The translations under genes were made by a program, and so were the position numbers. Positions 12,440-60,921 of a stretch of DNA of 64,000 bases are shown here, piece by piece. The stretch is from Haliclona indistincta (taxonomy: Eukaryota; Porifera; Demospongiae; Haplosclerida; Chalinidae). The notes beneath the pieces were generated by a model, which saw nothing but the letters and a program-made list of their open reading frames with translations, made no database searches and was not told the origin of the DNA. The first letter of the stretch is position 1; each line of letters begins with the position of its first letter. The DNA is taken from contig OZ024787.1 in NCBI GenBank assembly GCA_964017065.1, positions 7,206,996 through 7,270,995 on the forward strand. Reading direction: 5' to 3'.

Positions 12440-14578
12440 TCATTCTCCACTCCATGGTTCTTGTTCGCTAAGCCCAACAACCATTATCTTGTGTTCTATC
12501 TGCTTGAGATCATCAACAATATTGTGCAGTACCAGTTTGACGGTATGATACAGCAACTAGATGATCACTATACTGTGTGTTACTCATTCCTCAGGTAACA
12601 CTAATCTGGTCTACTCTGTTGTACGATCCAAACATGTCTTTTATCAGGTAAATATTTTTCAGTGTACTCGTTTCCGATGCAATACTGATTTATAGCTCTT
12701 TCTCCTCCTTAGAACAATTTTTGCTAGGTATTGTTAAAAAAAGAGTTCTATTTATTCAATTTCTATGCTTTGTTGTTGCTTGTGTATACTTAGTGTTTAT
12801 AGTTGGATTTCTTTGTACTAATGTTTGCCTCTTAGAGTGTTGTCTATGTGTTTCATTTTTCCAGTTGGCTGGTCTCTCTGATAATGCCTGTCTCAATGTG
12901 TCTCGTAATCGTTCCTCTCGTACTAAATCTACAACAGAGGAACCATCTCCAACCACTCAACAACCGCTTGCCGAGGACAGTGGAGAGATAGCATCAGACA
13001 CAAGTGTACAACAGCAGTCGCCACCTGGTAAGATAACTGAGAGGGAATGCTCTGTGTTACTCAGAATTTTTTAGTAGCTGAGGCAGTGACGGACTCCTCA
13101 CCTCCTCCTAACCCTCCTCCTCAAACAATGCCCGAGATAACACCACTGAAGAGAGTAGAAATGGAGACAGTAGAGGTGGAGATGGAGCCAGGAGCTGGTG
13201 GCACTGACTCGGTCCCACCCTCACCATCAACCCCACCTGTCACACCCTCACAAACTACACATACCAGCACATCACTGACAACCACGCCCACTTCTGTTCA
13301 GCCATCGTCCAGTGGAGCTAGCCAAGCAGCAGCCTCTCTTCCCTCTCATGTTGTTCCCTCCTCTAGTGGACCTACCTTTGCTTCATCTTATGATCTTCCT
13401 CCTGTTGTTGGAGCAGGCAAGAGAAAGAAGCAGTCTCGTCCTAGTAACCTACAACAAGCTAAACCAACACTGTATCCTCTTGGGAGGCAGGTCGCTAGTG
13501 GTAACAAGCTTCTTCTAGAGCCCACTACACCTACTGACTTCAAGGCCTCTCCTGAATGGGTACGATAGCTTCTACTTCTCTCTTTGTTTAGTTCCCTCTT
13601 GACAGCAATTCATTGTGCTATGTTTAGTATGGGTATTCTACTCTTTTTCTCTCTTTAGTTTTTTATTAAGTTCAATTTTGGTTTTACTAGGTTCGTAGCT
13701 GGAAGCAGCGTCTTCCTCTGCACACTGTACTGAGATTGCTGCAAGTACTGGTACCACAAGTAGAGAAACTGTGCTCGGAAAAGTGAGTGATACAACGAAG
13801 AAAATAGTCAACCAAACATACATATAGACAGACAGACAGACAGACAGGCAGCTAGACGAGTGCTTTCTTTGTGTGTCAACTGATGTGAATCTAAATAGCT
13901 GAACAAGCTAATAGTATTATCTTGTGTCTCTTTGTTGGTCATACACATGTAGTGAGGTGAAGTTTGAGACTGAGATACTGGAGTACCTGAAGAATGGTAC
14001 ACTAGTGGGGCTCCTCCCAGTACCACACCCCATTATCATCAGGAAATATCAGGTATTGACTACTATGTAATGTAGTGATAGTACTATAGTACAGTAGATA
14101 GTAGCATTGTGTCAGTAGTGATAGTACTATAGTACAGTAGATAGTAGCATTGTGTCAGTAGTGATAGTACTATAGTACAGTAGATAGTAGCATTGTGTCA
14201 GTAGTGATAGTACTATAGTACAGTAGATAGTAGCATTGTGTCAGTAGTGATAGTACTATAGTACAGTAGATAGTAGCATTGTGTCAGTAGTGATAGTACT
14301 ATAGTACAGTAGATAGTAGCATTGTGTCAGTAGTGATAGTACTGTAGTACAGTAGATAGTAGCATTGTGATGCGTCTTTGTTTTCATTTTCTTCAGACAA
14401 GTGAGAGTACCGAGATTTGGTTTCACACGTATATCTGGGGCGTGGTGTATGTGAGGTAAGAATGTTGAACCTAACCCATAGACCTGCTATAACAAGCCGT
14501 CTGTCTGTCAGGAACTATGAGCCTCCAATCTGGTATGACACCTTCATTAATCTCTTCACTGTCAACCGAAGCCAATAG
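12440..14578 (+). CDS. HID1: HID1 copy, 3' half (unit 0), frame intact
   Basis: Eight exons: 12440-12542, 12595-12647, 12865-13027, 13075-13559, 13691-13782, 13953-14052, 14397-14455, 14512-14578. All junctions are GT-AG and the phases add up. The protein reads SFSTPWFLFAKPNNHYLVFY, then NTNLVYSVVRSKHVFYQ, a Ser/Pro/Thr-rich linker, LRLLQVLVPQVEK, GTLVGLLPVPHPIIIRKYQ and WYDTFINLF, then a stop. This order matches the C-terminal half of HID1, a conserved Golgi/trans-Golgi peripheral membrane protein needed for dense-core vesicle biogenesis. Earlier exons must lie left of the window, beyond the intron that hosts ANK1. No lesion is visible in this half, so it may belong to the working gene. Confidence 0.85.
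14072..14390. repeat. 43-bp intronic minisatellite, seven copies
   Basis: The unit tagtgatagtactatagtac... repeats from 14,072 at a strict 43-bp period (14,115, 14,158, 14,201, 14,244, 14,287, 14,330). It lies in the intron between HID1 exons 13953-14052 and 14397-14455. Units 1 and 2 have no such expansion at this place. Confidence 0.9.
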
Positions 14579-14829
14579 AGAAGGAACAAATTGTACATAA
14601 ATTATACTGTGTGCAGTGCGTACAGCTGCTTATAATAATCAGATAATCATGAGCTCTATCTCTTAGGACTATTATTATTTTTACTGAAATACTTGTACCA
14701 TAACACCAAAATTTGATAATAAAAACCTGTATAAAATTGTATTTGAAAGTCATCTCAATTACCATGACGGCACACATGAATTGTAGTTGTTGCAAATACA
14801 AATGGGTAAAAATTTGACACTGTGACTAG

Positions 14830-14851
14830 TCACATACTCTAAGAAAATGAC
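14830..14851 (-). pseudogene. orphan tail of the PH-gene last exon at the array junction (unit 0/1)
   Basis: Reverse reading gives HFLRVCD and a stop. These are the last codons of the PH-domain gene, whose intact copy ends at 51,147. The sequence is followed at 14,852 by HID1 intron sequence instead of PH coding sequence. The same remnant is at 28,736-28,757 and 44,236-44,257. Confidence 0.8.
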
Positions 14852-15671
14852 AACAAACTGCTGGTAAGATTATTATCCTAGCTACTGTATGTAGTAGATA
14901 AGAATAATGATTTCTTTTTTCTTTCACAAGTGTTGAACTGTGTCCGTCTGCTCACTCGGCTAATCCCTCTCTTGTTTGAGTCTCCTGACTGGAGGCTGCT
15001 GTTCTGGTCTCCAGCAAACATCTCTAAGGTTGGTACGACCCTCCACTACAACAGACACTATCATACACATCTACCAACCTGAGGATAAATGGAGAGCACA
15101 TTATTATACCCTATAACCACAGACTCAAGTGAGGTAAAGGATGATGGCTTGTATGTGCTAGTATAGTGTGTTTCTGTTTATTATAAGATAAAGGAATGTT
15201 GTCCTACATGTGTGTGTTTGTGTCATTGATTGTGATTTTGTCTACTGAGTGAGTATGTGTGTGCATACATTGTACTTGTGTAGTAAGGAATTAAGCTGAA
15301 TTTGCATCTAATTGTTTGTTGTTTGTGACACTTGATAAAGCATCAACTCACTAGTGCTTGTGACGTCATCTTGGAATAGGGAGATGTTTTCTATTCGAGT
15401 AGTGTCACCACCGCATCCAGGAATCTGGTTAAATTAGCTTGCCTGGAACTATTGATAATTGGTACCATCAGCATTCAGGGTCTTATTCCAAATGTCTCTT
15501 TACATGTAAAGATAACTGGATTGTTTGCAGTGTTCTTTCTGTGAAATTTGATGAGTGCTGTACCACCATAGTGTTGTAGTCCTCTCCTCTATAAGCTTGA
15601 TTTCTAACTTCATCTTGCTCCATTAACATAGTAGAGTAAAGGTTACATATTTGCATTAGTGCGTGTCACTA

Positions 15672-15920
15672 TTTGTGAGCGGATTTTTGAAAGGGGTCAC
15701 TTTGCTCCTGCAATTTTTGAAGACATGCCTGATTTCAAATGGCCGCTACTCAGTCAAACATTATTGAAGCTCAATGAAATTTTTGTGTATATTATTTGAT
15801 GGCTCTGCTTGCAGTACATAAAATTTTAGTGCCATTGTACTAAATTTGGATGAATGGCAGCAAGTTGAAAACATGCATTCATTCGAAAACTGCATGAGTG
15901 AAGTGACCACATTCTCAAAT
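15672..15920. mobile_element. MITE-like element, ends GTGAGCGGATTT (copy 1)
   Basis: It starts tgtgagcggattt and ends with the inverted form aaatccgctcgat. A related copy is at 25,406-25,670. It lies inside a HID1 intron of unit 1 and is absent from the same intron in unit 3, so it inserted after duplication. Confidence 0.6.
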
Positions 15921-16454
15921 CCGCTCGATCCTATTTTGTGTTTTTCCCTAAAATGCATCCTTCATTTTACTGTCATAACACCTAAACACTGATTGATTGT
16001 ATTTGTTTATTCTAGGATATGGACTTCTTGATCAAAGGTCTCACATCATTGATTGCCAATCCTCTCAACCAGGTGAAACAGTTGTTGATATAACAAGAAA
16101 TAATATTGAAATGTTCTTATTATTAGAGTCGCACATATCTCCCTGGCTCTACTAAGAAGATATTCTTCACTGAAGTCCTGTATAATTATTATAGTATGGA
16201 AACTAGTCTCCATCAATCAGGTATGTTTTTAGAATTTGCAGAATATTTAACTTTTGTCCTTTTAATTAGAAATTCTGGTCTCACCTGCTAAGGAGTACGA
16301 TACTGTTTGAATTTCTTGTACCACTACTGTACGAGATACTGAATGCTCGAACTGACCCTAGTGAGTCTCACACCTCTTTGTTTCATGAGAATAGGGCTTC
16401 CACTTGTACTTGTATAGCAACTACTGTATTACGGGTAATTTTTGCTAGGCTGAA

Positions 16455-16514
16455 TCCCAATAAATGGCTGGAGGAAGACGCTGAAACACGCCATTTTAGC
16501 CATTTATTGGGAAT
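16455..16514. repeat. short hairpin, unit 1 only
   Basis: The arms cccaataaatggct and agccatttattggga flank about 30 bases. The matching intron in unit 3 (about 49,675-49,700) lacks it. Confidence 0.6.
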
Positions 16515-18325
16515 TTTTCGGAAATAAGATGCTACTACTCTTTCCAGTATAGCTGCCGCCCTAGAGTTTATCGCTTAGTCGCTTCAGCTTTTACGTGGGT
16601 ATAATTTTATGAACAGGCAAATGGACATACAAATTAGACTATTATGACATGATACATTTCATCAAGATTTGGACATTTTATTTTCGTTTTTGAGCAAAAA
16701 TTGCTGGGAAAAATAGGAACATTTAGCACTGAAAATTAGCTAGCCGCTATAGAAAATGTCGCTCTTGTCCTTTTTTAAATTCTTGTTCTTTTATTCCTCC
16801 TTTCTCAGATATGATCGGTATGCTTCATGTTGGTGTGTTCATTCTACTCATGTTGAGTGGTGAGAGGAACTTCAGTGTTCGTCTCAACAAACCCTACTCC
16901 AGTAAAGTGCCCATGGACATCCCACGCCTCTCCAAGGGCACACATGCTGATCTGCTCTTCTTGGTGAGGAAGCTAGCCTAGCTTGCTATCAGACACTACA
17001 GTACAGTCTCTGATTATTAAAGTCCATAATTATATTGCTGATTTAAGTGACAGTTCAAAGACTGTCCTCGTCCTGTACTTACATGTACAATAGTTGCTGT
17101 AAAATGCCTTTGCATAATACAGTATTCTTAATAATGTTTATCCTATTCCAGGTATTTCATCGTGTGATTACTGCTGGGTTACCATGGATACGGCCACTGT
17201 ATGACTGCCTCCTCACAGTGCTAGTGAATGGTAAGTGTATAAACCAGTGTCCAATAACCTGCTAGTGGTGCACTGTGATAGCAAAGTGAATGAAACGTAA
17301 ACAATAATGATCAAATCTTCTATGTTTGTCAAAAGGTCTTCGATACAGTACGAGTACACAGCTTTTGACTTGCATGTGTGGAGCCTTCTTCAGGTGTCAA
17401 ACAGTTTTGTGAAAGTGAAAGATTCGAAAATAGATACAGTACACCTGTACCATTCACTTTCACGTTCTGTATAATAGCTAGCCTCTAGAAAGACACTTTC
17501 TTGTTCTTACACATAAGTTGACTAAACTAGCGTACACATGAGCTCACAACATTGGGCTCATGCAGCACACAGTTTTGTGCTTTAACTTGTGTCCAGGGAG
17601 CTATGTAAGCTGCTTACTCTGTATGAATGATTAACAGCTTTGCTCACACGCTTGTACATGTACTATGACTACATGTAATGCAGTGTAAGCAACTTTGGTG
17701 CACCATATCAAAGAGCCAGTGATCAATTATTTATCTCTTTTCAGTGCAGTGTACGTTTCTTTTTTTTTCCAGTGTCTCCATATCTCAAGTCACTATCAAT
17801 GGTCACGTGCACTCGTATGATGCATCTTATGGAGGTACTTGCTTCTCTCTCTCTCTTCATTCTAAGATACAGTACCATGTGCATTGTCTGCTGATAATGC
17901 ATGTACCAAAAGTAGTAATTTTCACCTGATCGCAGCATGCAAAGAAACACATGTATGCATTGAAATAACATCTAAAAACGGCTGCTGTTTGAGCCGTACT
18001 ACTCAAAATCTCAGGTAGAATGCTCTAAGGTGTAGCTAATTTGTGCACTCCTGGTTAATGCTGTTTGCTCATTAATTATTCATGAGTAGCTACAAAAATA
18101 TATTCAGACACTGTGTCAAGATAAAATGCGTGTAAAGACAAGCAACCGAGATTAGTAATAGATGCCAAAGGATGCTCTTTTACAGTAGTTGACTGTAGTT
18201 CTGAAGCTAAGCTCTCACGCAAAGTAGCTTGGTAGCAGAAACCAAACACCCATCATGACTTTTCTGAGTTTCTGCGTCAACTTATGTCTCAGCTGTAGCA
18301 AAGAAACACAAACAAATACCACCAA

Positions 18326-18706
18326 CCAATGCTTCTGTATTTAGCGGAGTGCCATTGAGAGTCTGCAGGCGTCCCGATAAGCTAGCATAGAGAAATAAGC
18401 TGGGAAGTCGAAAATCCACGGTGATCTCTTCGAGTCATAACTTATGAATGGCAAATTTTCTAACAAAATTTTTACTCCTTGTCCGTGCCTACGACATCGT
18501 ACAACTGGAAGAACCAGGCTGTACGGTCTACTGGATGGAGCTGCTCACAAACTTTGACGCAGAAACGGTTCACCAGAGAGTCGCCATTTACTGAGCTAGA
18601 ACGAGGAAGTCCACGCCCACACAGCATAGGTGTGGTCGCCGCCTAACGATATCAAAAGTGCACATTCTATGCACAAAATTGTACGCACTAAACAGGGTAC
18701 CGCCAC
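18326..18706. repeat. dispersed repeat of about 370 bp (copy 1)
   Basis: It shares long blocks with 31,160-31,530 and with 63,018-63,385, for example tcgtacaactggaa and ctactggatggagctgct. Copies 1 and 2 are part of the duplicated unit; copy 3 lies outside it. Its nature is unknown. A - strand frame (VVRC-R/H-R-H/Q-GQGV) recurs, but I do not claim a protein. Confidence 0.7.
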
Positions 18707-19192
18707 CTTAACTAGATGTGTCACCCAGCCTTGGGATGACTCGTGAATCATGAAAACCTGACACGTACACATGTGAGCTGAGTCAAATAGTGGTACATGA
18801 ATGAAAGCTCAATCAATTCAGTTACTTGTATTATTGACAGTCAGATATGATTGTGATGTGGCAATTCCTTCCTTCTCTTGTTCCTGTATAGAGGACAATA
18901 CACACTCACAATCAGAGCTGGCACCAGCTAAGTTTGACAAAATTATTTACATGTATTTTGCGCATAAAGCATATGAAAGTTGCTGCTTTATGAGGCATAC
19001 CTACCAATGGTGCACCCACAGCATGATCAAAAACCTTCACAGACACTCGGGAACGACGGGAAGTATGGCAGATAAAAAGATTAAAGCATTTGTGTTTGGT
19101 CGTCAATCATTTTCTGGGTAAATACTGGTACAGCACTAGCGCACCTTTGCCGCCTTCCCTGATCATGATGATGTGCTAGTCACAACTCACCA
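18707..19192. other. 3' flank of ANK2, no separate gene accepted
   Basis: The sequence is shared with 31,531-32,017 in unit 2. A + strand frame of 106 codons (18,801-19,121) has a counterpart of 122 codons in unit 2. Since the duplication is recent, this does not show coding function. The ANK2 3' UTR should lie here. Confidence 0.4.
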
Positions 19193-22100
19193 TCAGTTGC
19201 TGTGGATCCTGTCAGCTGTCTCATGTTTTTCCATCTGCTTCAGTGCAGCTCTTAACACACTCCATGAAGGGACTCCCCTCTGTGAGACGTTGTCTTGTTG
19301 CTGCAGCCATGCTGAGAGCATGTCTATCCTGCATTGACTAGGTTTATAATGTCGATAGGTCTCGATATCAGTAAGTGTTGAGTAGAGAAGGCCTAGTTGT
19401 AGTCCAAGATCCTTCCAGTCATTGAGATCACGAATCACAGCCAACACATCACACAGGTCATTCTCAGCTGTAACGAGTAAATAAAGACAGGGCACTCTAT
19501 CCATCATTGTAACTTACATAGTCTTCTTGAGATGTCACCACTAACCCCAGCCGCAGCTGTAGGTAGCTGTGTATCAGTAGCTGTGTGTAGCTGTGTATCA
19601 GTAGCTGTGGGTAGCTGTGTATCACTAGCTGTGGGTAGCTGTGCATCAGTAGCTGTGGGTAGCTGTGTATCAGTAGCTGTGGGTAGCTGTGCATCAGTAG
19701 CTGTTGGTAGCTGTGCATCAGTAGCTGTGGGTAGCTGTGTATCAGTTGCTGTGGGTAGCTGTGCATCAGTAGCTGTGGGTAGCTGTGCATCAGTAGCTGT
19801 GGGTAGCTGTGCATCAGTAGCTGTGGGTAGCTGTGCATCAGTAGCTGTGGGTAGCTGTGCATCAGTAGCTGTGGGTAGCTGTGTATCAGTTGCTGTGGGT
19901 AGCTGTGTATCAGTAGCTGTGGGTAGCTGTGTATCAGTAGGTGTGTGTTGCTGTGTATCAGTGTGACTGATGATATCCTCCTCCTTCAGCTCAGCCACCT
20001 CCTGTACACACCAGAAAAACATACCATCACATGCTACAGTACAGCCTGCACACTGCAACTCACCAGAGGGTTCTGTCAGCAAATATGCTGTACTTGTCCA
20101 CACACTCCCTTAGCTCTTTGTGGTCTCGTGGTTTCTGATAGGGCAGTTGGCACTTGAGTACCTCGAGGAGAGAATCAGGAACAGGCTGGCTAGCCATGCT
20201 TTGATTGAAGAGCTGGCACACAGAGGAGGGTTGCAAGAGGTAGTAAGGCTCACATGATAGAGCCTCATCTGTTGAGTAAGTATTCATTCCTTCTTTACGA
20301 TCCAAGAGAAACTTGTGCTGTGGTTGACGAAGAAGCATCGACCTAGCTACTGTAGGTAGATCAAATAGGTCAGTGTCGGGCAAGGCATCAAAGGGATAGC
20401 GGTTGAGTAGAGAGGGAGAGATTAGACATTCACATGTAGTCACAACACTACACAGCTGGTGTTGGAGGTCGAGGATCATCCTGATGACACTGCTGCAGGT
20501 CTGTGCTGCTTCTCTGGTCTTCTCAGACAACAGCACAATGACCCAACGATTACGATCCACAATTTCTACTATAGTGGACACTCCAGAGCCACTCTTCCAG
20601 TAGATTCCATTTTGCCACACTTTGCACTGTCGCTCGAGACCGTACAGAGAGGAGGAGGGTGAAAGATGCTTACTAGCCATAGAAAATGTGAAGGCAAGCC
20701 GAAGGAGAAGAACATGTAGGAAACGATTGCTGAAAAATTGATGAGGGTCACTGCACCCTAGACACCAGCCAAACCTTGGTGAGGGGAGGTCACTACATGT
20801 AGGTCGATGCTCTTTAACAAGACTTGGAAAGAAGAGATGGTTAACTCTTGATGGAGGAGATGTAGTAGTATTGAGATTAGTGGCTTGAAGTGTAGAGGGG
20901 TCCACTGGATGACAGAATTCCATGCTCTCAAGACAGCCCACTAGCATATCTGAGCTGTACTGTGGGAACAACTCCTCAAGGGTCGCGACGGGCACCATAC
21001 CAGTGTTACTGGCAATTTGACGATACTGTTTGAAACATTCTGGAGCAAATAGTGTTCCATGGACCTCTCTCAGCAAGGCCTCTATCTCCACCACCACCCA
21101 GCTAGACTGGGGATGCTCCTGGTTTTGTATGAATAAAATGAGACCTTTGTCACTAAGGGAGGTTAGTGACTCTGTGAGTAAAGTTATGTCAGGTGGGAAA
21201 TCTTCTTCTAGATTGAAAGCAGAGGTCAGCTCATGCAGTGTGCAGCCTTTCTTCGTAAGCTTTGTGTGAAGAAAAGCATACAAAACATGACAGTGCAAGC
21301 TCATGCTGGGCTGGGATGATAGTATGGCTTGTTGGGTGGTCGAGAGGACAGAGCGAAAATAACGAGCTTGTTTGGTTTTTGATAGTCGACAGTCCATGCT
21401 TACAAATCCTCCATATGTCAGGTGCTTTACTCTGCTCTCTGCTATGCTCTTCACTACCAAACTCTTTTCCATTAGCTCTTGTGATGACTTGACCAGGTCA
21501 ACATGGCTGCCAACAATGATGACGTGTGATGATCCCTTGGCTGAGCTACAGGCGTTCTCTATGAAACTGATCCAGTAGTGTATGGACTCACTGATCTTGT
21601 CCATACACTGGCTCAGGTCTATGATACAAACAAATATAGCGGCAGAATTCCTCATTATGTGTTCCAGTACAGCAGCATGACTAGAGTAGTACTCTCGTTG
21701 TCCTGCGAAATCATATATTACCATGTTACCAACCTCGTTGACCTTGCTCTCAACATGGAGAGGTATGATTCCAGCAGTGAGGCATTCTACATCAGGAACA
21801 CGACCTGATGAAAACCTGGAGAAGAAGCCAGTTTTAGTAGCCAAGAGGAGAATCATTTGAGATATCGTTGTCTTGCCTGCTCCACTGTATCCAGTTAGGA
21901 TGAGTTTTGTATAAGTGTGCACAGGAAAATCTTTCTCACATTGTGGAAATGATTGGAACAGTTTTAGTAGATCATAGCTGTTTATTTGAGTAGCAATGTC
22001 TACTGGAGTCTCTTTGTTATTGTTCTCAGCCAGTAGGTCAACTTTACCAGTAGATAGTAAATATTGCACAACATTGGCATTGCCATAGCGACAAGCAATG

Positions 22101-24880: not shown

Positions 24881-25405
24881 CTCTGCTGTGTTGTTGTTCT
24901 CCACAGTTTAGTTCTCCGCAGTTCTCCGTAGCTGCATAACTCTTGTTATGACCAAACATGGTAAACTAGTTTAGATATGAATCGTATTATTATGACAGTC
25001 ATATTGTCTCTATGTACACTTCTGCTATTATCAATACTGTGATATAGTGTGTATTGTCTAATTCACAACATCTACACATGCGTTCTTCTCTATGCTTTTG
25101 TAGGCTCAGTTTCTACATTATGGATAAAGACTAGCACATGTATTCAGAGAGTAGAAAAGTAGAGTTAGCAATTCAATCGTAGTTTACATGTGCCTGAATT
25201 TATAATACATGTGAAGATAACTTATTTACCTATAATACATAACTATAGTTCCACAGTAGTTCATGTGTCTAAGCTAGCTTGACTTTCTGGCTAGGAAAGA
25301 GACCGTTAGCTATCATGCACAGGTTGCAATATCGGCAACAACTCAGTTGTTGGTGAAGGTCGCTTCTGATAGTTTTCGAAACTGATAGTTGTAGGACTTA
25401 ATATT

Positions 25406-25670
25406 GTGAGCGGATTTGAGAAATAGGAACGCTTCGCTCCTGCAATTTTTGAATGAACTCATGTTTTTAACTTGCTGCCATTCAGCCAAATTTAGTGCCA
25501 TACCTCTAAAATTTGGTATACAGAATGATCAAATATTTTACACAAAAAATTCAAAAAATAATTTTTAAACACAAGAATTTCATTGAGTTTCAGTAATGTT
25601 TGACTGAGTAGCAGCCATTTGAAAACAGGCGTGTGTTCAAAAGAGCAAAGTGACTCCTTTTCTCACAATT
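25406..25670. mobile_element. MITE-like element, ends GTGAGCGGATTT (copy 2)
   Basis: Starts ttgtgagcggattt, ends with an inverted counterpart (ccttttctcacaattg), and shares its interior in reverse orientation with 15,672-15,920. It lies between the ANK2 5' end and HID1 exon 25802. Confidence 0.55.
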
Positions 25671-39125: not shown

Positions 39126-39130
39126 TACAT

Positions 39131-39736: not shown

Positions 39737-39779
39737 AAGTAGGATTCAGAGATATTTTGCAATGAATCTTATAATCAAA

Positions 39780-39875: not shown

Positions 39876-39960
39876 TAAGTGGAGCAGAGAGACCAACCTG
39901 ACACTCCATATAGCCTTGTACCATGTCCCTTTGAAAAAGGACCTAGTACAGAGTGTCTAC

Positions 39961-41168: not shown

Positions 41169-41504
41169 TAATACATGCATGCATTTTAACAATTTTAAGT
41201 GGTAATAACATGGGCATGATGATTTAGGGGAAGGGTGATGTTTTGTCACATGATTATGTTCTTATAAACTACTTCTTGAGAGCTCCTACATGCATTCTTC
41301 GACATTGGTGAGTGTGGAGAAGTGCTAGCAGACAATGAAATGTTTGCTGAAAGTCTATCATCGCGTCAAAGAAAGGACTAGTGTGTCATGGACGCCCAAG
41401 ACAAGTGGTGCTAGTGACATAGCCTGGAGCATACGCAGACAGTCTGTACCAGGTTCTTTTCTGAAAAAGAGCCTGGGAACGAGGCTAGCACTCCACAATA
41501 CACC
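41169..41504. other. no gene recognised; repeat debris
   Basis: AT-rich sequence followed by a block with gcctggagc and gagcctgggaacgaggct. The latter resembles ends of common small repeats but is too short to classify. Confidence 0.35.
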
Positions 41505-41632
41505 TGGTGTGGTTATCCTGATGGCAGCTGGTTGTTTCTATTTGTGGTGCAGTCTCTCAGCATTTTTTCCTTTGCTGACACACACTCACTCTCCATTTTT
41601 TCTGTGACATCTCTGCTGCAGTTGCCATGCCC
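41505..41632 (-). pseudogene. relic of an ANK gene 5' end next to HID1
   Basis: It aligns by eye with the ANK3 5' coding end at 38,570-38,720 (cacctggt..., gcagctggttgtt, gcagtctct, ttttttctgtgacatctctgctg). It abuts the splice acceptor of HID1 exon 41654. It is further evidence that ankyrin copies were lost from this intron. Confidence 0.6.
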
Positions 41633-44503
41633 ATTTCTTCTTCTCTCCCATAGTCATTCTCCACTCCATGGTTCTTGTTCGCTAAGCCCAACAACCATTA
41701 TCTTGTGTTCTATCTGCTTGAGATCATCAACAATATTGTGCAGTACCAGTTTGACGGTATGATACAGCAACTAGATGATCACTATACTGTGTGTTACTCA
41801 TTCCTCAGGTAACACTAATCTGGTCTACTCTGTTGTACGATCAAAACATGTCTTTTATCAGGTAAATATTTTCCAGTGTGCTCGTTCCGATGCAATGATA
41901 TATAGCTCTTTCACCTCCTTAGAACAATTTCTGCTAGGTATTGTTAGAAAAACGAGTTCTATTTATTCAATTTCTATGCTTTGTTGTTGCTTGTGTGTAC
42001 TCAGTGTTTACAGTTGGATTGCTTTGTACTAATGTTTGCCTCTTAGAGTGTTGTCTTTGTGTTTCATTTTTTCCAGTTGGCTTGTCTCTCTCTGATAATG
42101 CCTGTCTCAATGTGTCTCGTAATCGTTCCTCTCGTACTAAATCTACAACAGAGGAACCATCTCCAACCACTCAACAACCGCTTGCCGAGGACAGTGGAGA
42201 GATAGCATCAGACACAAGTGTACAACAGCAGTCACCACCTGGTAAGATAACTGAGAGGGAATACTCTGTGTTACTCAGAATTATTTAGTTGCTGAGGCAG
42301 TGACGGACTCCTCACCTCCTCCTAACCCTCCTCCTCAAACAATGCCCGAGATAACACCACTGAAGAGAGTAGAAATGGAGACAGTAGAGGTGGAGATGGA
42401 GCCAGGAGCTGGTGGCACTGACTCGGTCCCACCCTCACCATCAACCCCACCTGTCACACCCTCACAAACTACACATACCAGCACATACCAGCACATCACT
42501 GACAACCACGCCCACTTCTGTTCAGCCATCGTCCAGTGGAGCTAGCCAAGCAGCTGCCTCTCTTCCCTCTCATGTTGTTCCCTCCTCTAGTGGACCTACC
42601 TTTGCTTCATCTTATGATCTTCCTCCTGTTGTTGGAGCAGGCAAGAGAAAGAAGCAGTCTCGTCCTAGTAACCTACAACAAGCTAAACCAACACTGTATC
42701 CTCTTGGGAGGCAGGTCGCTAGTGGTAACAAGCTTCTTCTAGAGCCCACTACACCTACTGACTTCAAGGCCTCTCCTGAATGGGTACGATAGCTTCTACT
42801 TCTCTCTTCCGTTCCCTCTTGACAACAATTCATTGTGCTTTGTTAGTATGGGTATTGTACTCTTTTTCTCTCTATATTTTTCTTATAAAAGTTAATGTTT
42901 TGGTTTTTACTAGGTTCGTAGCTGGAAGCAGCGTCTTCCTCTGCACACTGTACTGAGATTGCTGCAAGTACTGGTACCACAAGTAGAGAAACTGTGCTCT
43001 GAAAAGTGAGTGATACAATGAAGAATAGTCAACCAAGCATACATAGACAGACAGACAGACAGATAGCTAGACGAGTGCTTTCTTTGTGTGTCGACTGATC
43101 TGAAACTAAATAGCTGAACAAGCTAATAGTATTATCTTGTGTCTCTTTGTTGGTCATACACATGTAGTGAGGTGAAGTTTGAGACTGAGATACTGGAGTA
43201 CCTGAAGAATGGTACACTAGTGGGGCTCCTCCCAGTACCACACCCCATTATCATCAGGAAATATCAGGTATTGACTACTAAAATACACTAAGTAATGTAG
43301 TGATCGTTCTATTGTTTAGATTAGTAGATAGTAGCATTGTGTACTATTATAGTAACGATAGTACTAGTCTCCTCTCTGAGCTCTCTCCTCTCTGAAAAGC
43401 GCAAACTTATGGTACCACAATGGCCCAGCTGACTGAGATCATCCATCTTATGCTTCTGAGGAAATCGGTCAGCTGTTGGAAGACCTTAAAAACAACACCG
43501 CTTTTACCAGCCTGTGGACGTCGTTAGGGCTGAGAGCTCTTGGTCTCCCTTCAGGCCTTGGACTAACTCTTTTTTCCTAGCTGCATTGTATCATTCCTTA
43601 CAGCACCGCTTTATTCCTTCCACTACTTCATTCACTATCTGTATTTGCCTGTCCTATTCATCATTATGCATTGATCATGACTGCTAAAAATGATAGTACT
43701 AGTACAGTAATAATAGTACTGTAGTGCTATCATTACTAATAGCATTACTAGATAATAGCATTGTGATGTGTTTTTTTTGTTTTCATTTTCTTCAGACAAG
43801 TGAGAGTACCGAGATTTGGTTTCACACGTATATCTGGGGCGTGGTGTATGTGAGGTAAGAATGTTGAACCTAACCCATAGACCTGCTATAACAAGCTGTC
43901 TGTCTGTCTGTCTGTCAGGAACTATGAGCCTCCAATCTGGTATGACACCTTCATTAATCTCTTCACTGTTAACCGAAGCCAATAGAGAAGGAAAAAATTG
44001 TACATAAATTATACTGTGTGCAGTGCGTACAGCTGCTTATAATAATCAGATAATCATGAGCTCTATCTCTTAGGACTATTATTATTTTTACTGAAAAATA
44101 CTTGTACCATAACGCCAAAATTTGATAATAAAAAACCTGTATAAAAATATGAAAGTCATCTCAATTACCATGACGACACACATGAATTGTAGTTGTTGCA
44201 AATAAAAATGGGTAAAATTTTGACACTGTGACTGGTCACATACTCTAAGAAAATGACAACAAACTGCTGGTAAGATTACTATCCTAGCTACTGTATGTAG
44301 TAGATAAGAATAATGATTTCTTTTTTTTATAAGTGTTGAACTGTGTCCGTCTGCTCACTCGGCTAATCCCTCTCTTGTTTGAGTCTCCTGACTGGAGGCT
44401 GCTGTTCTGGTCTCCAGCAAACATCTCTGAGGTTGGTACGACCCTCACTACATCAGACACTATCATACACATGTACCAACCTGAGGATAAATGGAGAGTA
44501 CAT

Positions 44504-46436
44504 AACTGTGGCGAGTCTGAGCGAGCCCCACATTGATGGTGACAATGCTCCGCGCCCCGGGGGACCTATCTATGTCGCCTCGATGTTCCCGAGAAGTAGT
44601 ACACGCGCCACGGGTGTTTTTAACTGGCCAAGAACCAATAATTAGATTCACGTAGAAATAATTGCGGTACATACCAAAGCTACATAGCAACCGCAGCAGC
44701 AAGAAAGTTGTTGGTTGCTATGGCTCATTGGCTCCTATTCTTGGTCTGTGACCACTTTCTTAACAACAATGGTTAACTTATGTCCACTGACATGCATATT
44801 ATACCAAGTACGCATGCACCAACTCAACCGTTCGGGAATAGCGCGGCAGCTGACACACCGTACTACACTACAAAGAAAGGCGGTCCCTTTTGATAAAGAT
44901 CTATAGAGGTGGTGCTGAGGTTTTGTTACCTAAACAGTTTCTACTATTCATTGGAGAAAGGTCCAAGGTAGGTATTAAACTATAAATAATCTTGCTTATC
45001 ATTTTTCAGGCACTGTTTTTTAGACTGTTTTGGTAGCCTATTTTTACAACATAATTATAATACATCATACAGACATCAGCATGGAAAAACACGTTCAGCT
45101 CCTCCCAAGGCACTGTAGAATCAGTGCTACAGGGTAGAGTACAGTTCAGTGAAACACAGCACACTCCTTGAAGAGGCATTTGGTGTCAGATGGACACAGG
45201 TCGCCGTCAAATACAGTGCCAGCGTGGCGTGCGGCACACTCTCTCTTTCCTCACAGCAATGTGTACCAATGATCAGCTCAACTTGCTCTACGTCACCATC
45301 ACAAGAGCTACTCATTATGTCAGTTTAATGTCTGCATCAGTAGATGTGTAGATCAAGCCAGGGAGTATCCTGTACTGCACTGTATGCTCTCATCTGTTTC
45401 TGGGATTTCAGATGGAGTAAGTAAATTTACCGCACAAGTTACACTAAATTCAAGCAAGTATTCATGGCATATGCTAAATGCCATGACATTCATGACAGCT
45501 CTAGCCTGCTTGAACCACCAGTCATACAACAGCTTCATAATTAAGCTTTACAATAATCTTTAACACATATCAAAGAACTGCAGGTGTGGACATTGACAAA
45601 CTTATGGCTAGAGGAATGAAAAGTTGGATTTGCTCTCTAAAACCCTCTCAAGCCAAGAAGAAGCAATGACATTAACGCACACACTATATTAAACATCTAG
45701 CATCCACATACAAATCCTTTAGCCATCTATAAATGGCTTACAACAGAGGAATAATAGTAAGCGTACATCCACCGGTTTACCGTGCACAGAAAAATAATAA
45801 GCACAAAGAAAACCTCACCAGTCAATTGTCTACACACCAAGCTTCCTGTCTCACCATGTGCCAGACGTTCAGAAACTTCCAGTTCGCTGTAAACTGCTGA
45901 TAAACCTTTAATAAGCACGCGAGCATAACTCCTAAACGCAGCAACGTATTCGACCGCTTCGAGGGCGAGATTCACCAAAGAGGGTTCTTCTTCGAGGTCA
46001 CGAGACTAACGCCTGTCTATCGCTAATAACAGGGTTAACCCACACTGTAAAACACTAGTCAACACATGGTAACTAGGGCGTTGCTAGGCAGTGTTCGAGT
46101 TTACTCTGACGTCACTACTTGGCCGCGAATCATTGAATAAAAACACCCGTGGCGCGTACGCATTGACCGCGCCCCATGATGTAATCCTCACGTGGCGCGA
46201 TTCAAAATAAGACAGCCAGCATTGGAGACGCCTGGCCCACCTGGATACACTTCTACAAGGCAAGAGTACTATCAGGAAGCGACAACGAGCAGCAGAGTCA
46301 CCTGATCACAGAGCTCTACGACTGGAGCGACAACGGGAATACCAGAGGGCTTACTGTTGTGCATGTAGAAAATTGGAGTGTTCTTGTGCAGCACATAAAT
46401 CAGCTCAGGCTCGCCCCCAGTATTTTATAAATGTAC
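44504..46436. mobile_element. 1.9-kb insertion in HID1 intron 1 of unit 3
   Basis: Units 1 and 2 are continuous across this point (gagagcacatta...ataccctataaaccac). Unit 3 has 1.9 kb in between. Inside, an 18-bp inverted pair, cgcgccacgggtgttttta at 44,604 and its complement at 46,138-46,156, brackets about 1.55 kb. Flanks are CpG-richer than average, and a TGACGTCA site lies at 46,108. Near the right end (about 46,265-46,430) an Arg-rich + frame reads RKRQRAAESPDHRAL, RLERQREYQR, then CCACRKLECSCAAH. Such Arg-rich repeats occur near the N-termini of some transposon proteins; assignment is tentative. Confidence 0.55.
45820..46000 (-). other. possible exon inside the unit 3 insertion
   Basis: A - strand open stretch (EEEPSLVNLALEAVEYVAAF, then SYARVLIKGLSAVYSELEV) has protein-like composition. 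It ends at a possible donor, gactg|gtgagg, near 45,820. There is no in-frame ATG before the upstream stop, and no second exon is convincing. It could be a captured gene piece. I do not recognise it. Confidence 0.25.
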
Positions 46437-46954
46437 TAGTTATACACTATAAACCACAGTCTATTGAAAGCACTATAGTTTGTCAGGTGTATACACTGTT
46501 AGTTATCAGCTATTCTAGATCTGTATCCGTACTCTACACTAGCAGATACAGGATACACTCACAATGTTTTCTCACATGCATGTCTAGTGAAAACATTTTT
46601 GAAATACTCTGCGTTACTCTTGCACTTCATTTTTATTCTCTTTCCTCAGCATAGTGATCATGGTCCTCCTCCTGCTCTAGCACAAGTGTTGCTGGATTCT
46701 TTAGCAGTGAGCACTAAGTTCTCTTTCTCTCCTCTGAATCTCTCTATATTGATGCACTTCTTTATCTTTCTCTCCTTTTAGAACCTCCTGTTCTGTCCTG
46801 ATTTTACTGTTCTTTCTAAGGTTGTTTCAGGACCGGTAAGTCAGCATCACTCACCATCACAGTTCACTTTGTAATATTTTGTTCCACAGGAGAAACCTGA
46901 CGATCTCTCCTCACTTGAGAGCAGTGAATACATCTGGTAACCTACTGTTCTATA

Positions 46955-47110
46955 TCTCTTTCCCTTTCCCGCTCTCTCTCTCCCTCTCTCCCCCTTCCTC
47001 CCTCCCTCTCTCCCTCTCTCCCTCTCTCCCTCTCTCCCTCTCTCCCTCTCTCCCTCTCTCCCTCTCTCCCTCTCTCCCTCTCTCCCTCCCTCCCTCCCTC
47101 CCACCCTCCC

Positions 47111-47168
<58 letters not shown>
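46955..47168. repeat. polypyrimidine (CTCT/CCCT)n tract in HID1 intron
   Basis: About 210 bases of almost pure C and T in the intron between exons 46890-46936 and 47365-47486. Open frames across it are compositional. Confidence 0.95.
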
Positions 47169-47170
<2 letters not shown>

Positions 47171-48071
47171 TCTCTCACACAATCATTACTCTTACTTTCA
47201 ATACTACACTGCTACTGATTTTTATCCAGTACTCGAAAAAATTCAGTATTCTCCTTTTGCATACAGAAATGATATTTTACCTCATCCACAAGTTTTAACA
47301 TGTGCTTCCAAAAGCCTGTTTTAGTCTATCTACACCCACATGTTTCATCTTATGTGTGATACAGGGAGTCTGGTATTGGGTGCACACAATCTCCTGGCAC
47401 TACCAAGCAACTGGACAACAACAGAACAGAAATACTCAAGCTACTGCTGGCTTGTTTCTCAGAGTCACTCTACTCACCTTCTAGTGGTAGGAAAACGTAA
47501 CTCAGTACTCTTGATTTAAAAAAACCTGCTAAGATACCCTGCTAAAACAGCTGCTTTTTGAAACTGTATCACACATCCAAGTATTTTCCCACTTTGCAGG
47601 ATTATGGTTAACCTTTATGTAGGCTAGTTTCATTTTCACTACCTTCCATAATTATAAATGAGTCTCACCTTCTCTGATTTGTGGTCGTTTGTCAATCCTA
47701 TGCCTTGCTCTGGAGAGACATTTTTTGAATGCAACACAATTTTATGTCAGTGTCATTAGATTAGACAGAGTTGTGTACAGCTTGATCATCTCTTCCTTCT
47801 CATTCAGAGTCTGTTCATAATCAGAATCGCTGGATCAATCACTTCACGTCTCCTGCCAACAGACACATACTACCGCTACTGACATCGTTCTTAAATGTCA
47901 TCTGCACCTATGATCCTGTCGGATATGGTGTACCGTACGTCTTCTCTCTCTTCCTCCCTCTCTCTCTCTTTCAAATGAAGTATTTATCCACTATTATTGT
48001 TGTAGACTGGTTGTTGTTGTAGACTGGTGGATAGTTTTGTCTAAATGTCAAATGAGCTTCTTTAATTCTTT

Positions 48072-48236
48072 TACAGTGGAACCCCTCTTAGCAGACACCC
48101 CTCATCCCTCTATAATGGACACCTACTGAATCCCAAATATAACCCACATAATGAACCCCTGACCAGAGGACACCCTTTCTATAATGGACAATTTTGTTGG
48201 TCCCAATGGTGTCCACCTTAGAGTGGTTCCACTGTA
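48072..48236. mobile_element. 165-bp MITE, TIR TACAGTGGAACC (copy 1)
   Basis: Starts tacagtggaacccctctta and ends gagtggttccactgta, with TA at both ends. A second copy is at 56,821-56,993. A Tc1/mariner-like origin is likely from the TA ends, but no transposase is present. Confidence 0.75.
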
Positions 48237-50906
48237 CATAGCTCTGAGTCTGAACTATCATGTGATGTGTAGAAGTGAATTCAAACTTAAATTTGTACAA
48301 ATCTTTTTGTCAGTAGCAGATGAGCTTTTGTATACCACAGTTGCCCTTCTCTCTACCCTGCTATATTGCTGTCGTCTTGTTCACTCATTCTCCTCCTCCT
48401 CTCAGCTATTACTATGCCGTGGTAGCTGACCCCAGGGAGCAGCTCGTCGAGACTTGCTCTCACATGTTGACTGTTCTACTGGACTACTCACCACCCTTGC
48501 ACTCTGGTCACACCCACACTCTCCTCCCACCTGAAGAGGGCAAGCCCCCGGCTATACAAATACAGGAAGAGACCGGTTTAACAAACCTGTTTGTCGCCTA
48601 TGTATCTCGCCTTCATCAAGTTGAGGTAATGGATGATAGCTTGCATGTGCTAATGTAGTGTGTTTCTGTTATTATAAGATAAAGGAATGTTGTTCTACAT
48701 GTGTGTGTGTGTGTCATTGATTGTGATTTTGTCTATTGAGTGAGTATGTGTGTGCATACATTGTACTTGTGTAGTAAGGAATTAAGGTGAATTTGCATCT
48801 AAATGTTTGTTGTTTGTGACACTTGCTAAAGTGTCAGCTCACTAGTGCTTGTGACATCATCTTGGAGTAGGAAAATATTTGTTCAAGCAGCGTCACGGCA
48901 TTCAGGAATCTGGTCAAACTAGCTTGTCTGGTATTAATGATAATTGGTATCATCAGCATTCATGAGCGTCATATTCCAAATCTCTCTTTACTTGTACATG
49001 TAAAGATACCTGGATTATTTGCTGTGTTCTTTCTGATGAGTGCTGTACCACCATAGTGTTGTAGTCCTCTCCTCTATAAGCTTGGTTTCTAACTCATCTT
49101 GTTTAAGCTCCATTGACATAGTAGAGTAAAGGTTACATATTTTCATTTACTCGTGTCACTATAATTTTTGTGCTTTTTTTCCCGAAAAATGCATCCTTCA
49201 TTTTACTGTCATAAGACCTAATCACTGACACTGATTGGTTGTATTTGTTTATTCTAGGATATGGACTTCTTGATCAAAGGTCTCACATCATTGATTGCCA
49301 ATCCTCTCAACCAGGTGAAACAGTTGTTGATATAAAAAGAAATAATATTGGAATTACTTATTATTAGAGTCGGACATATCTCCCTGGCTCTACTAAGAAG
49401 ATATTCTTCACTGAAGTCCTGTATATTATAGTATGGAAACTAGTCTCCATCAATCAGGTATGTTTTAGAATTTGCAGAATATTTAACTTTTGTCCTTTTA
49501 ATTAAAAATTCCGGTCTCACCTGCTAAGGAGTACGATACTGTTTGAATTTCTTGTACCACTACTGTACGAGATACTGAATGCTCGAACTGACCCTAGTGA
49601 GTCCCACAGATCTTTGTTTCATGAGAAGCTAAGAATAGGGCTTCCACTTGAATTTGTATAGCAACTACTGTATTACGGGTAGGCTAGGCTTAATCGCTTC
49701 AGCTTTTTTGCGGATATAATTTTTACGAACAGGCAAATGAACATTAATTCAAATTGCACACTATACAACATGATACAATTCATCAAGATTTGAGCTTTTT
49801 ATTTTTGTTTTTTAAGCAAAAATTGCGGGAAAACAGGAACATTTAACACCGTGAAAATTAGCCGCTATAGAGCATTTCGCTCTTGTCATTTTTCTTTTCA
49901 AATTCTTGTTTCCTCCTTTCTCAGATATGATCGGTATGCTTCATGTTGGTGTGTTCATTCTACTCGTGTTGAGTGGTGAGAGGAACTTCAGTGTTCGTCT
50001 CAACAAACCCTACTCCAGTAAAGTGCCCATGGACATCCCACGCCTCTCCAAGGCCACACATGCTGATCTGCTCTTCTTGGTGAGGAAGCTAGCCTAACTT
50101 GCTATCAGACACTACAGTACAGTCTCTGATTATTAAAGTCCATAATTATATCGCTGCTGTAAGTGACAGTTCAAAGATTGTCCTCGTCCTGTACTTACAT
50201 GTACATGTACAATAGTTGCTGTAAAATACCCTTGCTTAATACAGTATACGTTTATCCTATTCCAGGTATTTCATCGTGTGATTACTGCTGGGTTACCACG
50301 GATACAGCCACTGTATGACTGCCTCCTCACAGTGCTAGTGAATGGTAAGTGTATAAACCAGTGTCCAATAACCTGCTAGTGGTGCACTGTGATAGCAAAG
50401 TGAATGAAACGTAAACAATAATGATCAAATCTTCTATGTTTGTCAAAAGGTCTTCGATACAGTACGAGTACACAGCTTTTGACTTGCATGTGTGGAGCCT
50501 TCTTCAGGAGTCAAACAGTTTTGTGAAAGTGAAAGATTCAAAAATAGATACAGTACACCGGTACCATTCACTTTCACGTTCTGTATAATAGCTAGCCTCT
50601 AGAAATACACTTTCTTATTCTTACACATAAGTTGACTAAACTATCGTACCTGACTACACATGAGTTCGTAACATTGGGCTCATGCAGCACACAGTTTTGT
50701 GCTTTAACTTGTGTCCAGGGAGCTAGCTTGTTGCTTACTCTGTATGAATGATTAACAGCTTTGCTCAAGCTCATACATGTACTATGACTACATGTAATAC
50801 AGTGTAAGCAACTTTGGTGCATCACATCAAAGAGTGATCAATGATTATCTCTTTGTACTTCATTGTATGCTTATTTTCTTTTTCCAGTGTCTCCATATCT
50901 CAAGTC

Positions 50907-51106: not shown

Positions 51107-51146
51107 AGTTGATGCAAATAAAATGGGTAAAAATTTGACACTGTGA

Positions 51147-54100
51147 CTAGTCACATACTCTAAGAAAATGACGGAGTTGGTCCATTGCGTTCTCTTCTTG
51201 TAGCCAAGGTGCTTCACCTGGTAATGGCATCCAGTCAATCTCCTCGTCCTCTTGTCTCCAGCTCTCGTCTACTGCTACTAGTTCTCTTAAGCGACCAATG
51301 AATGAGTTTGGAGGAAGTGGAGGCTCTCGTGGAGGGGACTGCAGAGATCGACGTCGAGCACTATTAGCAGGACCGGGTGGAGGTGGTAGTTTAGGAGGAA
51401 TAGTGTCAGGAGAAACCGATCTGCTACGGGTCTGCTCAACAGATGGAGGTGGTAGTTTAGGAGGAATAGTGTCAGGAGAAACCGATCTGCTACGAGTCTG
51501 CTCAACAGATGGAGGAGGAGGTGGAGAGCGGAGAGGGCTTCTTGGCTCGGTTCTTTTCTGGTTGATTGTCTCAACTACTTGCTCCTCCTCTTCCTCTTTG
51601 ATAGCTTCTGGTATTGACATGGGTGGTGGAGAGTGAAGAGGACTTGTTAGCTTCTGTGTTGTTGTCATGGCAACTTGCTCTTGCTCCTCCTCTTTGATGA
51701 CTTCTGGCAGTGACATATCTAGCACAGGAGGTAAGTCTAATTCTACTGGCGAGACAGATCGGCTTGACTCAATCGTTGAAGGTGGGAGGTCATTGTCATG
51801 AGATGTAGAGATGCTGTCAGTTGTAGTTGCAATGTCCTCTGGAAGAGTAGGCAGCTCCATCTCAATAGGACTAACAGAGCGGTCAACTGGTCCAGTTTCT
51901 GATGGTGTGGGAGCTGGGACAGAGTCAACAATGGCTGGGATAGTGGGAGGAAGAAGTGGTTCTTCAACTGGGCTAAGAGGAGGCGGGTCTGGAGAAGGGA
52001 GTTCTATGACTAATGGTGAAGGAGAACGGTTAACATCAGTGTCTAGATCAGTTCCTACTGGACTGCCATCAGTTGGTTGTGGCAAGCTATAGCTAGCAAC
52101 ATCAATGTCCTGTGGGAGCGGAGGGAGTTCAACGTCTACTGGAGACATTGGCGGTAGGTCCTCAAATATCGGTGAAGAAGGCGGTAGGTCCTCTAATATC
52201 GGTGAAGAAGGAAGCTCAGCATCTACTGGAGGTAAGGTAAAATCGAGTGGAGGAAGGTCAGTGTTAGCTGAGGGAGGAGGAAGGAGTTCAATGCCGACTG
52301 GTATTACAGGAGGTAGTGCTTCATCAACTGGTGAGACAGAGCGAGGAAGGGGAGCTGCTACTTTCTCCTCTTCCTGAATGGACGGAGGAAGACTCAAGTT
52401 GGGATCACCTTTGAAAGACGGAGAGGTTGGTTCTACGCTAGTTGGTGAAGGAAGTGATTCTGTTACAGTTTGAGGAGTAGCCTCGATTTGAGCAGTTGGA
52501 GGAGGAGAATGTGATACTACAGTGTCAAGTGTGTGAGGTTGTTCTGCTGTGGGACTGGGTAGTGTAGGGAGAGGAAGAGTGATGTGTTCAGGTGAGCCAG
52601 GAGGGGAATCATGACGAGTAGTCGTATTGTTCACATCAAATCCATGATAGCTGTGTGAGTTGGGCAGAGTTGCCTCTCGCTGATCAGCTGGCACTTTAGG
52701 TTTATGTGTCCTAGCTACTGTTGCTGACTGGTACGTGCCTGGTTCTGGTGGTAAGGGACGTTGAGGTGACTTGGGCCTGTTACTGCCTGCAGCACCCGGT
52801 TCTGGTGGTAAAGGTCGTTGAGGCGAACGGGGCCTACTGCTGGCTGGCTGTACTACTGCATGAGTTCGTCTGCTTTGGCTGCGCTTCACTGTTGCTCTCC
52901 TTCTTTTCAGATCAGGCTGGCCCTCATCAAACCCGCCTCCTCTGAGAAATTAAAATACAACACTAGAACAGAATGTCCACATTAATACTCACTTTGTGTA
53001 CAGAGTCATCTTGCTCTTTATTGAACTCACCCACTGATTCATATCAGTTTCATTCCTTGCCGCCTGTTATAAAATAAACAGTAATACATTAATATACACT
53101 AGAACCATACACTTCTGCTTCCTTTATAATAATAATTATTACAGAAAGTTTACCATACACTCACCAAAACATGCACTCTGTTGGCAGTTTTCAGTTCAAA
53201 GGGAGCACCAAAGCTTGCCATCCTGGTAGCACCAACTGTGTAGCACTGTAGAGAAGCAGCAACAGTAAGCCTCAGTGGATGATTCTTTGTGTGTTTTACA
53301 GAATGAGACACTTTGTGTGTGCTGTGTGTTTTATAGAATTGATTCCACATGTGTGTGTTTCTGTAGTTTTCTGTCAATGTTTACGCAACAGTAGACACAG
53401 TATATGTCTGTGTTGTTGATATGTCTTTGCTTCCACAGCACCAACCAATGTAGATTGTAAGTGTTTGTCATTTGATGAGTGGGCTCACTATATTTGCTGC
53501 CCACACGACACTTACCAATACTATACACTTAAAAAGAGGTTTCGTATTAATGTAAACACACACAACAGATAGATTAACCACACACACACAGTCAGTGTAC
53601 ACCTGTATACACACTAACATGCACTCACCTGGCTCAGATCAATGTAGCCAAGACAGCATGGTTTCTGTGCAAGATAAAAAACCAATGGCTACTTTAATTG
53701 CAGCAGAGCATGATGGATGCTTCGTGTGTACAGGCAGAAATGCATTTGACACTCATTGACAGTATAAGACAGACAAAAGGGCAAATTTACTGTTCAACTG
53801 ACACCCAGTTTTAGCTATAGCTGGTCCATAATCATTTGCTCAAACCCATTGTATACTTTGTGTTAAGAACCCATACAATGGTGTCTCTGCTGAAGGTTGT
53901 AGACCAAACTTAGCTTCCTTTTTAGTTTAGCAGGAATCACTAATTATTTTATTAGCAAACCTTTGAGTTCTTGTAGTAGTACATATTGGAGCCCTGTATC
54001 TCGAAGTAACGTTGCTTCCATGTCTTGAATATTCTACCCAGCTTGTGCAAGTTGCCCGAGATCACCAGCGGCTCCTCGGCCGGACTGGGCGGCATTATGT

Positions 54101-54524: not shown

Positions 54525-60921
<6,397 letters not shown>

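What the first reader, a model, noticed from the sequence alone, without database searches (positions are those of the whole stretch)
12440..51172. Tandem array of HID1 units, each with an antisense ankyrin-Roc-COR-Death gene in the same intron
The nested gene lies on the - strand between HID1 exons ending HLME and starting SFSTPW in units 1 and 2, and at the matching place in unit 0. Array amplification therefore copied a host gene and its guest together. The host copies decay while the guests vary in domain-repeat number. The guest architecture (ankyrin, Roc GTPase, COR, Death) is that of signalling or immune scaffolds by family. The idea that selection on the guest drove the amplification is inference.
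Basis: partly seen in the sequence, partly recalled or inferred. Interest (0 to 1): 0.85.

Follow-up and report, generated by a model that had tools for sequence, protein, structure and literature searches.

The report
HID1 gene array with nested guests
In an animal genome a secretory-pathway gene (HID1) has been copied in a row about six times together with an immune-type signalling gene lying backwards inside one of its introns; only the first HID1 copy is complete, but the end part of the other copies looks preserved, and the same immune-type gene family has multiplied beside another, unrelated gene elsewhere.

Summary
The array starts 42 kb left of the window and runs without a gap to 200 N at 50907-51106. 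It holds six HID1 units (A-F; C-F in the window) and six minus-strand ankyrin-Roc-(COR)-Death genes. In units A, B, D and E the guest lies in the intron between HLV/ME and SFSTPW. Unit C has lost the left border exon and has two guests; unit F is cut by the gap. Only unit A has exons 1-3; all five unit junctions share one breakpoint inside exon 3, so one founding duplication was multiplied. The array guests fall in one clade. Corrections: (1) 'host copies decay' fits the 5' halves. The 3' halves (366 aa, with HID-1's mapped functional domain) show 1 nonsynonymous against 8 synonymous changes; unit E's is frame-broken. (2) Guest synonymous divergence is 0.17-0.23, but unit junctions differ by 2-3.4% and host 3' exons by 0.7-2.3% at synonymous sites: host parts were homogenised. 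(3) The guests belong to a family of at least 71 genes; on C4 it is interleaved with copies of a KIF23-like kinesin, which supports, without proving, guest-driven amplification. Most likely: unequal crossing-over of host-guest modules.

The parts
12440..14569 (+). HID1 unit C, 3' half: exons e16-e22, no stop or frameshift in the exon blocks
14570..14929 (+). unit junction C|D: HID1 3' flank joined to the last 12 bases of exon 3 (at 14852-14863)
   Evidence: divergence
14930..17834 (+). HID1 unit D, 5' part: e4, e10-e15 (e5-e9 missing; +4-base frameshift in e11 near 16184)
25802..28473 (+). HID1 unit D, 3' half: e16-e22, no stop or frameshift in the exon blocks, one T>M change
28834..30699 (+). 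HID1 unit E, 5' part: e4, e13-e15 (e5-e12 missing)
41654..43976 (+). HID1 unit E, 3' half: e16-e22, frame broken by +2 bases in e18a and +10 bases in e18b
44333..50343 (+). HID1 unit F: e4-e14 including e5-e9, cut off by the contig end
50907..51106 (.). 200-N gap that ends the array's gap-free stretch
2332..6397 (-). guest 0: ankyrin-Roc-COR main frame 2811-5747, shifted N-terminal piece 5687-6397, Death exon 2332-2598
19196..24907 (-). guest 1: main exon 20060-24907 (1615 codons), minisatellite linker exon about 19540-19985 (splicing inferred), Death exon 19196-19465; 1-base deletion before the first donor
32021..38775 (-). guest 2: ankyrin-Roc frame 34660-38775, family likeness interrupted about 34431-34782, COR and C-terminal pieces in two frames 32994-34430, Death exon 32021-32290
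17835..25801 (.). host intron 15 of unit D (7967 bases) enclosing guest 1
30700..41653 (.). host intron 15 of unit E (10954 bases) enclosing guest 2

Best explanation
A minus-strand Ank-Roc-COR-Death gene came to lie in intron 15 of the single HID1 gene (inferred). One tandem duplication joined the HID1 3' flank to exon 3 (shown by one breakpoint in all junctions), making a second unit without exons 1-3 and their promoter. Unequal crossing-over between units then multiplied the host-guest module and kept mixing the host parts (shown: host 3' halves give conflicting groupings and low divergence; guests stay diverged). Unit A remains the only complete HID1 found. The downstream 5' halves degrade, whereas the 3' halves have evolved under protein-level constraint, either because they are still transcribed or because they are repeatedly exchanged with the functional gene's own 3' half (inferred). 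Retention of the array most likely reflects benefit from many guest copies, as for the rest of this large family (inferred).
For: Six units and exon losses. Exons 1 and 2 match at DNA level in unit A only, and the last 12 bases of exon 3 in all five downstream units at the junction. Array guests in one clade. 3' half: 1 nonsynonymous, 8 synonymous changes among A-E (P about 1e-4 against neutral); 5' halves of B-E: 10 and 6; difference P 0.033; from e18a to e20, exons vary in 8 of 828 columns, the introns among and before them in 74 of 544. Host region e16-e20: 17 two-against-three columns in 9 different splits. Guest Roc-COR dN/dS 0.24-0.37, dS 0.17-0.23. Family: 71 matches at 76-100% identity, 69 of 71 without a stop (71 of 537 candidates scored). 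KIF23-like copies between guests on C4. HID-1's functional domain is its C-terminus, residues 687-788 (PMC10522040, abstract and passages); the matching blocks b19-b22 are identical in protein in A-E (the match to human numbering rests on a recalled human sequence).
Against: No transcript data, so function of any downstream copy is untested. Unit E's 3' half is frame-broken, and guests 0, 1 and 2 carry defects, so constraint on every copy is not shown. The 3' contrast rests on 9 changes; the 5'/3' difference is only P 0.033. Two short introns and the 3' flank are also nearly invariant, so exchange explains part of the likeness. Protein constraint could predate the duplication if the copies come from diverged haplotypes.
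Confidence: 0.6

Rival explanations
1. The downstream HID1 copies are plain pseudogene passengers; the preserved 3' exons reflect constraint from the time when each copy was an allele of the functional HID1, later brought together by unequal crossing-over between diverged haplotypes.
For: Even the 5' exons of units lacking exons 1-3 differ less than their introns; A-F shows 1 nonsynonymous and 11 synonymous changes although F lacks exons 1-3; unit E is frame-broken in two places.
Against: Proteins from other assemblies match guests A, B, 0, 1 at 99.9-100%, which does not suggest strongly diverged haplotypes here; 5' halves of B-E already show 10 nonsynonymous against 6 synonymous changes while 3' halves do not.
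Confidence: 0.25
2. Downstream 3' halves are live C-terminal HID1 modules, transcribed away from a promoter shared with the guest's 5' end (0.5-0.9 kb from e16 in units A, B and D) or by splicing from unit A.
For: Guest 5' ends face e16 at short distance in A, B and D; 3' halves constrained; the isolated HID-1 C-terminus works when tethered to the TGN (PMC10522040, abstract).
Against: No methionine in e16, e17 or e18a and an in-frame stop directly before e16, so an upstream start would be needed; the distance is 2.9 kb in E and 6 kb in C; E is frame-broken.
Confidence: 0.2
3. Assembly artefact: repeats come from collapsed or merged haplotypes.
For: A gap lies inside unit F; three guest-clade proteins (P0003, P0004, P0006) of other assemblies have no full-length counterpart in the 200 kb: 87-89% over the last 640 residues; the best piece is 92-95% over 284 residues of guest 2. 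P0003 has none in the genome either, best rows 84-89% (44 of 1172 candidates scored).
Against: Six units lie in one gap-free stretch with guests 10-15% apart in protein; another assembly appears to hold guests A and 0 on one contig.
Confidence: 0.04

Closest known systems
Human RCCX module (C4-CYP21-TNX-STK19), PMC8362596 (passages)
   Same: Tandem module carrying genes on both strands, one of them a truncated partner copy (TNXA); copy number changed by unequal crossing-over and gene conversion.
   Different: There the genes partly overlap; here the immune-type gene sits wholly inside a host intron, copy number is six or more, and most truncated host copies keep a constrained 3' half.
DAPK1 (third ROCO group), PMC6337361 (passages)
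   Same: Roc GTPase, COR-like region and C-terminal Death domain in the same order; ankyrin repeats before Roc (their place in DAPK1 is recalled).
   Different: No kinase domain found; 71 or more copies in one genome; variable ankyrin number and a minisatellite linker.
Sponge NLR expansions, PMC12909245 (passages); brown-algal ROCO expansions, PMC11378527 (outline and abstract)
   Same: Lineage-specific expansions of repeat-NTPase scaffold genes thought to act in immunity.
   Different: In what I read, neither describes nesting in, or co-amplification with, a housekeeping gene.

Membership tests
HID1 (PF12722) | Hid1 domain over the family cut-off | tested here: met
   23 matches, all in C5:7165127-7257338 (56 of 463 candidates scored)
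HID1 (PF12722) | complete set of exons from start codon to stop | tested here: met
   unit A only: exons 1-22 recognised, start codon at -41992; not met by units B-E; F is cut by the gap and lacks exons 1-3
ROCO / DAPK1-type protein | Roc GTPase domain | tested here: met
   PF08477 over cut-off in guests 0, 1, 2; LRRK2 Roc in the PDB E 1.1e-9
ROCO / DAPK1-type protein | COR domain directly after Roc | tested here: inconclusive
   no Pfam match; hhalign to COR-A genes of the same genome P 3.8e-4, probability 36%, at the right place; structure prediction not available
DAPK1 | N-terminal kinase domain | tested here: not met
   no kinase in the main frames of guests 0, 1, 2 or in P0003 and P0006; a distant upstream exon was not searched for
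DAPK1 | C-terminal Death domain | tested here: met
   PF00531 E 2.8e-5 on the guest-1 exon; homologous exon beside all six guests; out of frame in guest 1
Nested gene in a host intron | guest wholly between two consecutive host exons, opposite strand | tested here: met
   units A, B, D, E; left border missing in C, not visible in F
Immune receptor/scaffold | immune function | not testable with these tools
   family inference only

The most novel reading that the evidence does not exclude
An immune-type Ank-Roc-COR-Death family spreads by making host-guest modules with whatever gene it lies in or beside (HID1, KIF23-like), and the broken host copies are kept as working C-terminal modules, so that a defence family's amplification re-engineers housekeeping genes.
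Probability: 0.15. Interest if true: 0.85.

Novelty: new variant of a known kind. Interest (0 to 1): 0.6.

Why it matters
It is a clean natural case in which the copy number of an immune-type gene and that of a housekeeping gene are physically locked together, with one complete host gene left. It makes testable whether guest selection drives the amplification, how a cell copes with headless HID1 copies, and whether 3' halves of a broken gene can stay under selection. The second cluster, with KIF23-like copies, suggests the pattern recurs.

Tried and rejected
Merged haplotypes: rejected (gap-free stretch, other assemblies, divergence). Simple whole-copy decay of the host: rejected for the 3' halves as a group, not for unit E. 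Repeated independent insertion of guests: not favoured, the guests fall in one clade at one position. Outside gene conversion as source of guest divergence: not supported by the tree; but units D and E share stretches only 1-4% apart in the ankyrin part, a local exchange. Host in every guest cluster: rejected; the C8 spacer piece read is a dispersed element without a second copy in that cluster, and the C1 piece is co-duplicated but I recognised no gene in its open frames by eye (no family search was run on it). The ATG in the unit junction as new start: out of frame with e4 (read). Search of plasmids for the HID1 half: no match, uninformative. Literature: searches listed no paper whose title or abstract start describes a nested immune-type gene co-amplified with HID1 or KIF23; that covers only this open library and those terms.
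Full report
What is there. The window is C5:7206996-7270995 of a 144-Mb, 46-contig genome that is not named; window position = C5 position minus 7206995. I fetched 100 kb to the left and 36 kb to the right. The window matches this stretch exactly, and the only N in the 200 kb are at 50907-51106. The Pfam Hid1 matches listed all lie in this locus (23 matches, 56 of 463 candidates scored). Exon mapping gives six tandem units: A -41992 to -27817 (exons 1-22), B -27455 to -9096 (e4, e10-e22), C -8742 to 14569 (e4, e10, e11, e16-e22), D 14930-28473 (e4, e10-e22), E 28834-43976 (e4, e13-e22), F 44333-50343 (e4-e14, then the gap). Exon numbers are mine and splice sites were read by eye; unit A supplies the start codon, MGGGGSKEAF, at -41992. 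Exons 1 and 2 match nowhere else in the 200 kb.

The guests. Six minus-strand genes lie at -35381 to -30929 (A), -16043 to -12001 (B), -6103 to -3139 (C), 2332-6397 (0), 19196-24907 (1) and 32021-38775 (2). The main exon of the three tested by Pfam (0, 1, 2) encodes ankyrin repeats and Roc, followed by a COR-like region (weak). A 24-base minisatellite seems to form a linker exon and a last exon encodes a Death domain (splicing inferred). Units A, B, D and E enclose the guest in an intron of 6289, 5827, 7967 and 10954 bases between e15 and e16. In unit C no e12-e15 was found and there are two guests with dispersed repeats between them, as if two units had fused. Main frame open from its MSQ start through Roc-COR: A, B, C and 1. 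Guest 1 lost one base just before its first donor, putting the Death exon out of frame; the protein P0001 of another assembly ends the same way. In guest 2 the likeness is interrupted between Roc and COR; guest 0 has a frame break among its ankyrins.

Not an assembly artefact. Among the 120 listed proteins of public assemblies (831 above threshold), P0001 and P0002 equal guests 1 and 0, and P0005 and P0007 match A and B at 99.9%. P0005, P0002 and P0050 (the family member at -86722, 99.7%) share the longest-contig length 296,703, which I take as one contig. P0003 has no close match in this genome (best rows 84-89%, 44 of 1172 candidates scored); P0004 and P0006 did not complete. So more guests of this clade probably exist in the species, in the gap or on other haplotypes. 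The HID1 e18b exon protein stands for 11 member sequences in those assemblies, with a 1-residue-shorter form (P0122) and an 89% relative (P0123).

Origin. All five unit junctions have the same join of HID1 3' flank to the last 12 bases of exon 3, so one duplication founded the array. Junctions differ pairwise by 7-12 of 345-358 bases.

Two histories in one unit. In 500-base bins the divergence from D is 0.3-8% in the 3' half, 1-12% from e4 to e15 and 1-20% over the guest. Guest Roc-COR dS is 0.17-0.23 among A, B, C, 0 and 1 and 0.31-0.35 to the outside copy, with dN/dS 0.24-0.37; the two pieces of guest 2 give dS 0.24-0.32 and 0.13-0.15. Host 3' exons differ by 0.7-2.3% at synonymous sites. 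In e16-e20 the 17 two-against-three columns fall into nine different splits. This is the mark of exchange between units in the host part, while the guests stayed apart; units D and E share stretches only 1-4% apart within the ankyrins.

Constraint. In e16-e22 (366 aa; A-E) I count 1 nonsynonymous and 8 synonymous changes, leaving out three codons of E at a 2-base insertion; neutral P about 1e-4. In e4 and e10-e15 of B-E the count is 10 and 6 (P 0.18; one of the ten, in e15, may have happened in A instead; changes seen in A alone were left out). Between A and F it is 1 and 11 (P 2e-6). 3' against 5': P 0.033. From e18a to e20 the exons vary in 8 of 828 columns and the four introns before and among them in 74 of 544. 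I chose that stretch; the other exons vary in 2 of 270, the introns e16-e17 and e21-e22 in 0 of 52 and 1 of 56, the 3' flank in 1 of 106, and the e20-e21 intron, which has two forms that do not align, was left out. Against this reading: E has two frame-breaking insertions, the counts are small, and exchange explains part of the likeness. The preserved part contains the residues that PMC10522040 identifies as HID-1's functional domain (687-788; abstract and passages read). Whether the modules are live is open.

The family elsewhere. Guest Roc-COR finds 71 matches at 76-100% identity (71 of 537 candidates scored), 69 of 71 without a stop, on C1, C4, C5, C7, C8 and C9, many of them clustered. In the C4 cluster (11 listed guests between 13.87 and 14.06 Mb) the spacer that I read holds a KIF23/MKLP1-like kinesin on the same strand as the guests (Kinesin E 1.6e-27; MKLP1 Arf-binding E 3.5e-17). 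Motor exons recur at four places and the Arf-binding exon over cut-off at nine places in C4:13.87-14.06 Mb, and once on C5 3.9 kb from a lone guest-family gene; further kinesin matches at 81-89% lie at C8:7.40-7.42 Mb. In the one spacer read the next guest follows the kinesin's 3' end; the kinesin's first exons were not seen there, so nesting in an earlier intron is not excluded. A C1 spacer piece is co-duplicated at 93% without a recognised gene; a C8 piece is not co-duplicated. So a passenger gene was seen in 2 of 4 clusters sampled, and most of the other three was not read.

Reading. A host-guest module was founded once, multiplied by unequal crossing-over and homogenised in its host part. 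The guests are a large, mostly open-framed, DAPK1-like family without a kinase found. Guest-driven retention is plausible because the same family expanded with a different passenger; it is inference. Compared with the RCCX module (PMC8362596, passages) the mechanism is known in kind; full nesting, constrained headless host copies and recurrence with a second passenger make it a variant.

Noticed in passing
C4:13867651-14055622 (L045, L046 read): Nine copies over cut-off of the 3' part of a KIF23/MKLP1-like kinesin are interleaved with Ank-Roc-COR-Death genes; its motor exons were found at only four places there.
   Followed up: partly
19497-19985 and 32322-32945: 24-base minisatellite (TDAQLPTA) open in more than one frame, between the main exon and the Death exon of guests 1 and 2; array length differs.
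   Followed up: partly
L025-L028, window coordinates about 65871-96682, - strand: Ten similar frames in tandem right of the window, the one tested a fibrinogen C-terminal domain (PF00147 E 8.9e-47), and an AIG1-type GTPase at -93116 on the left.
   Followed up: partly
57252-58295: Rhodopsin-family receptor frame on the - strand (PF00001 E 2.5e-18).
   Followed up: partly
21831-23830 against unit E: Guests 1 and 2 are only 1-4% apart in three of four 500-base bins of this ankyrin stretch but 15% apart in the fourth: patchy recent exchange between guests.
   Followed up: no
51147-52949: 600-codon proline-rich frame on the - strand directly right of the gap, no Pfam match.
   Followed up: no
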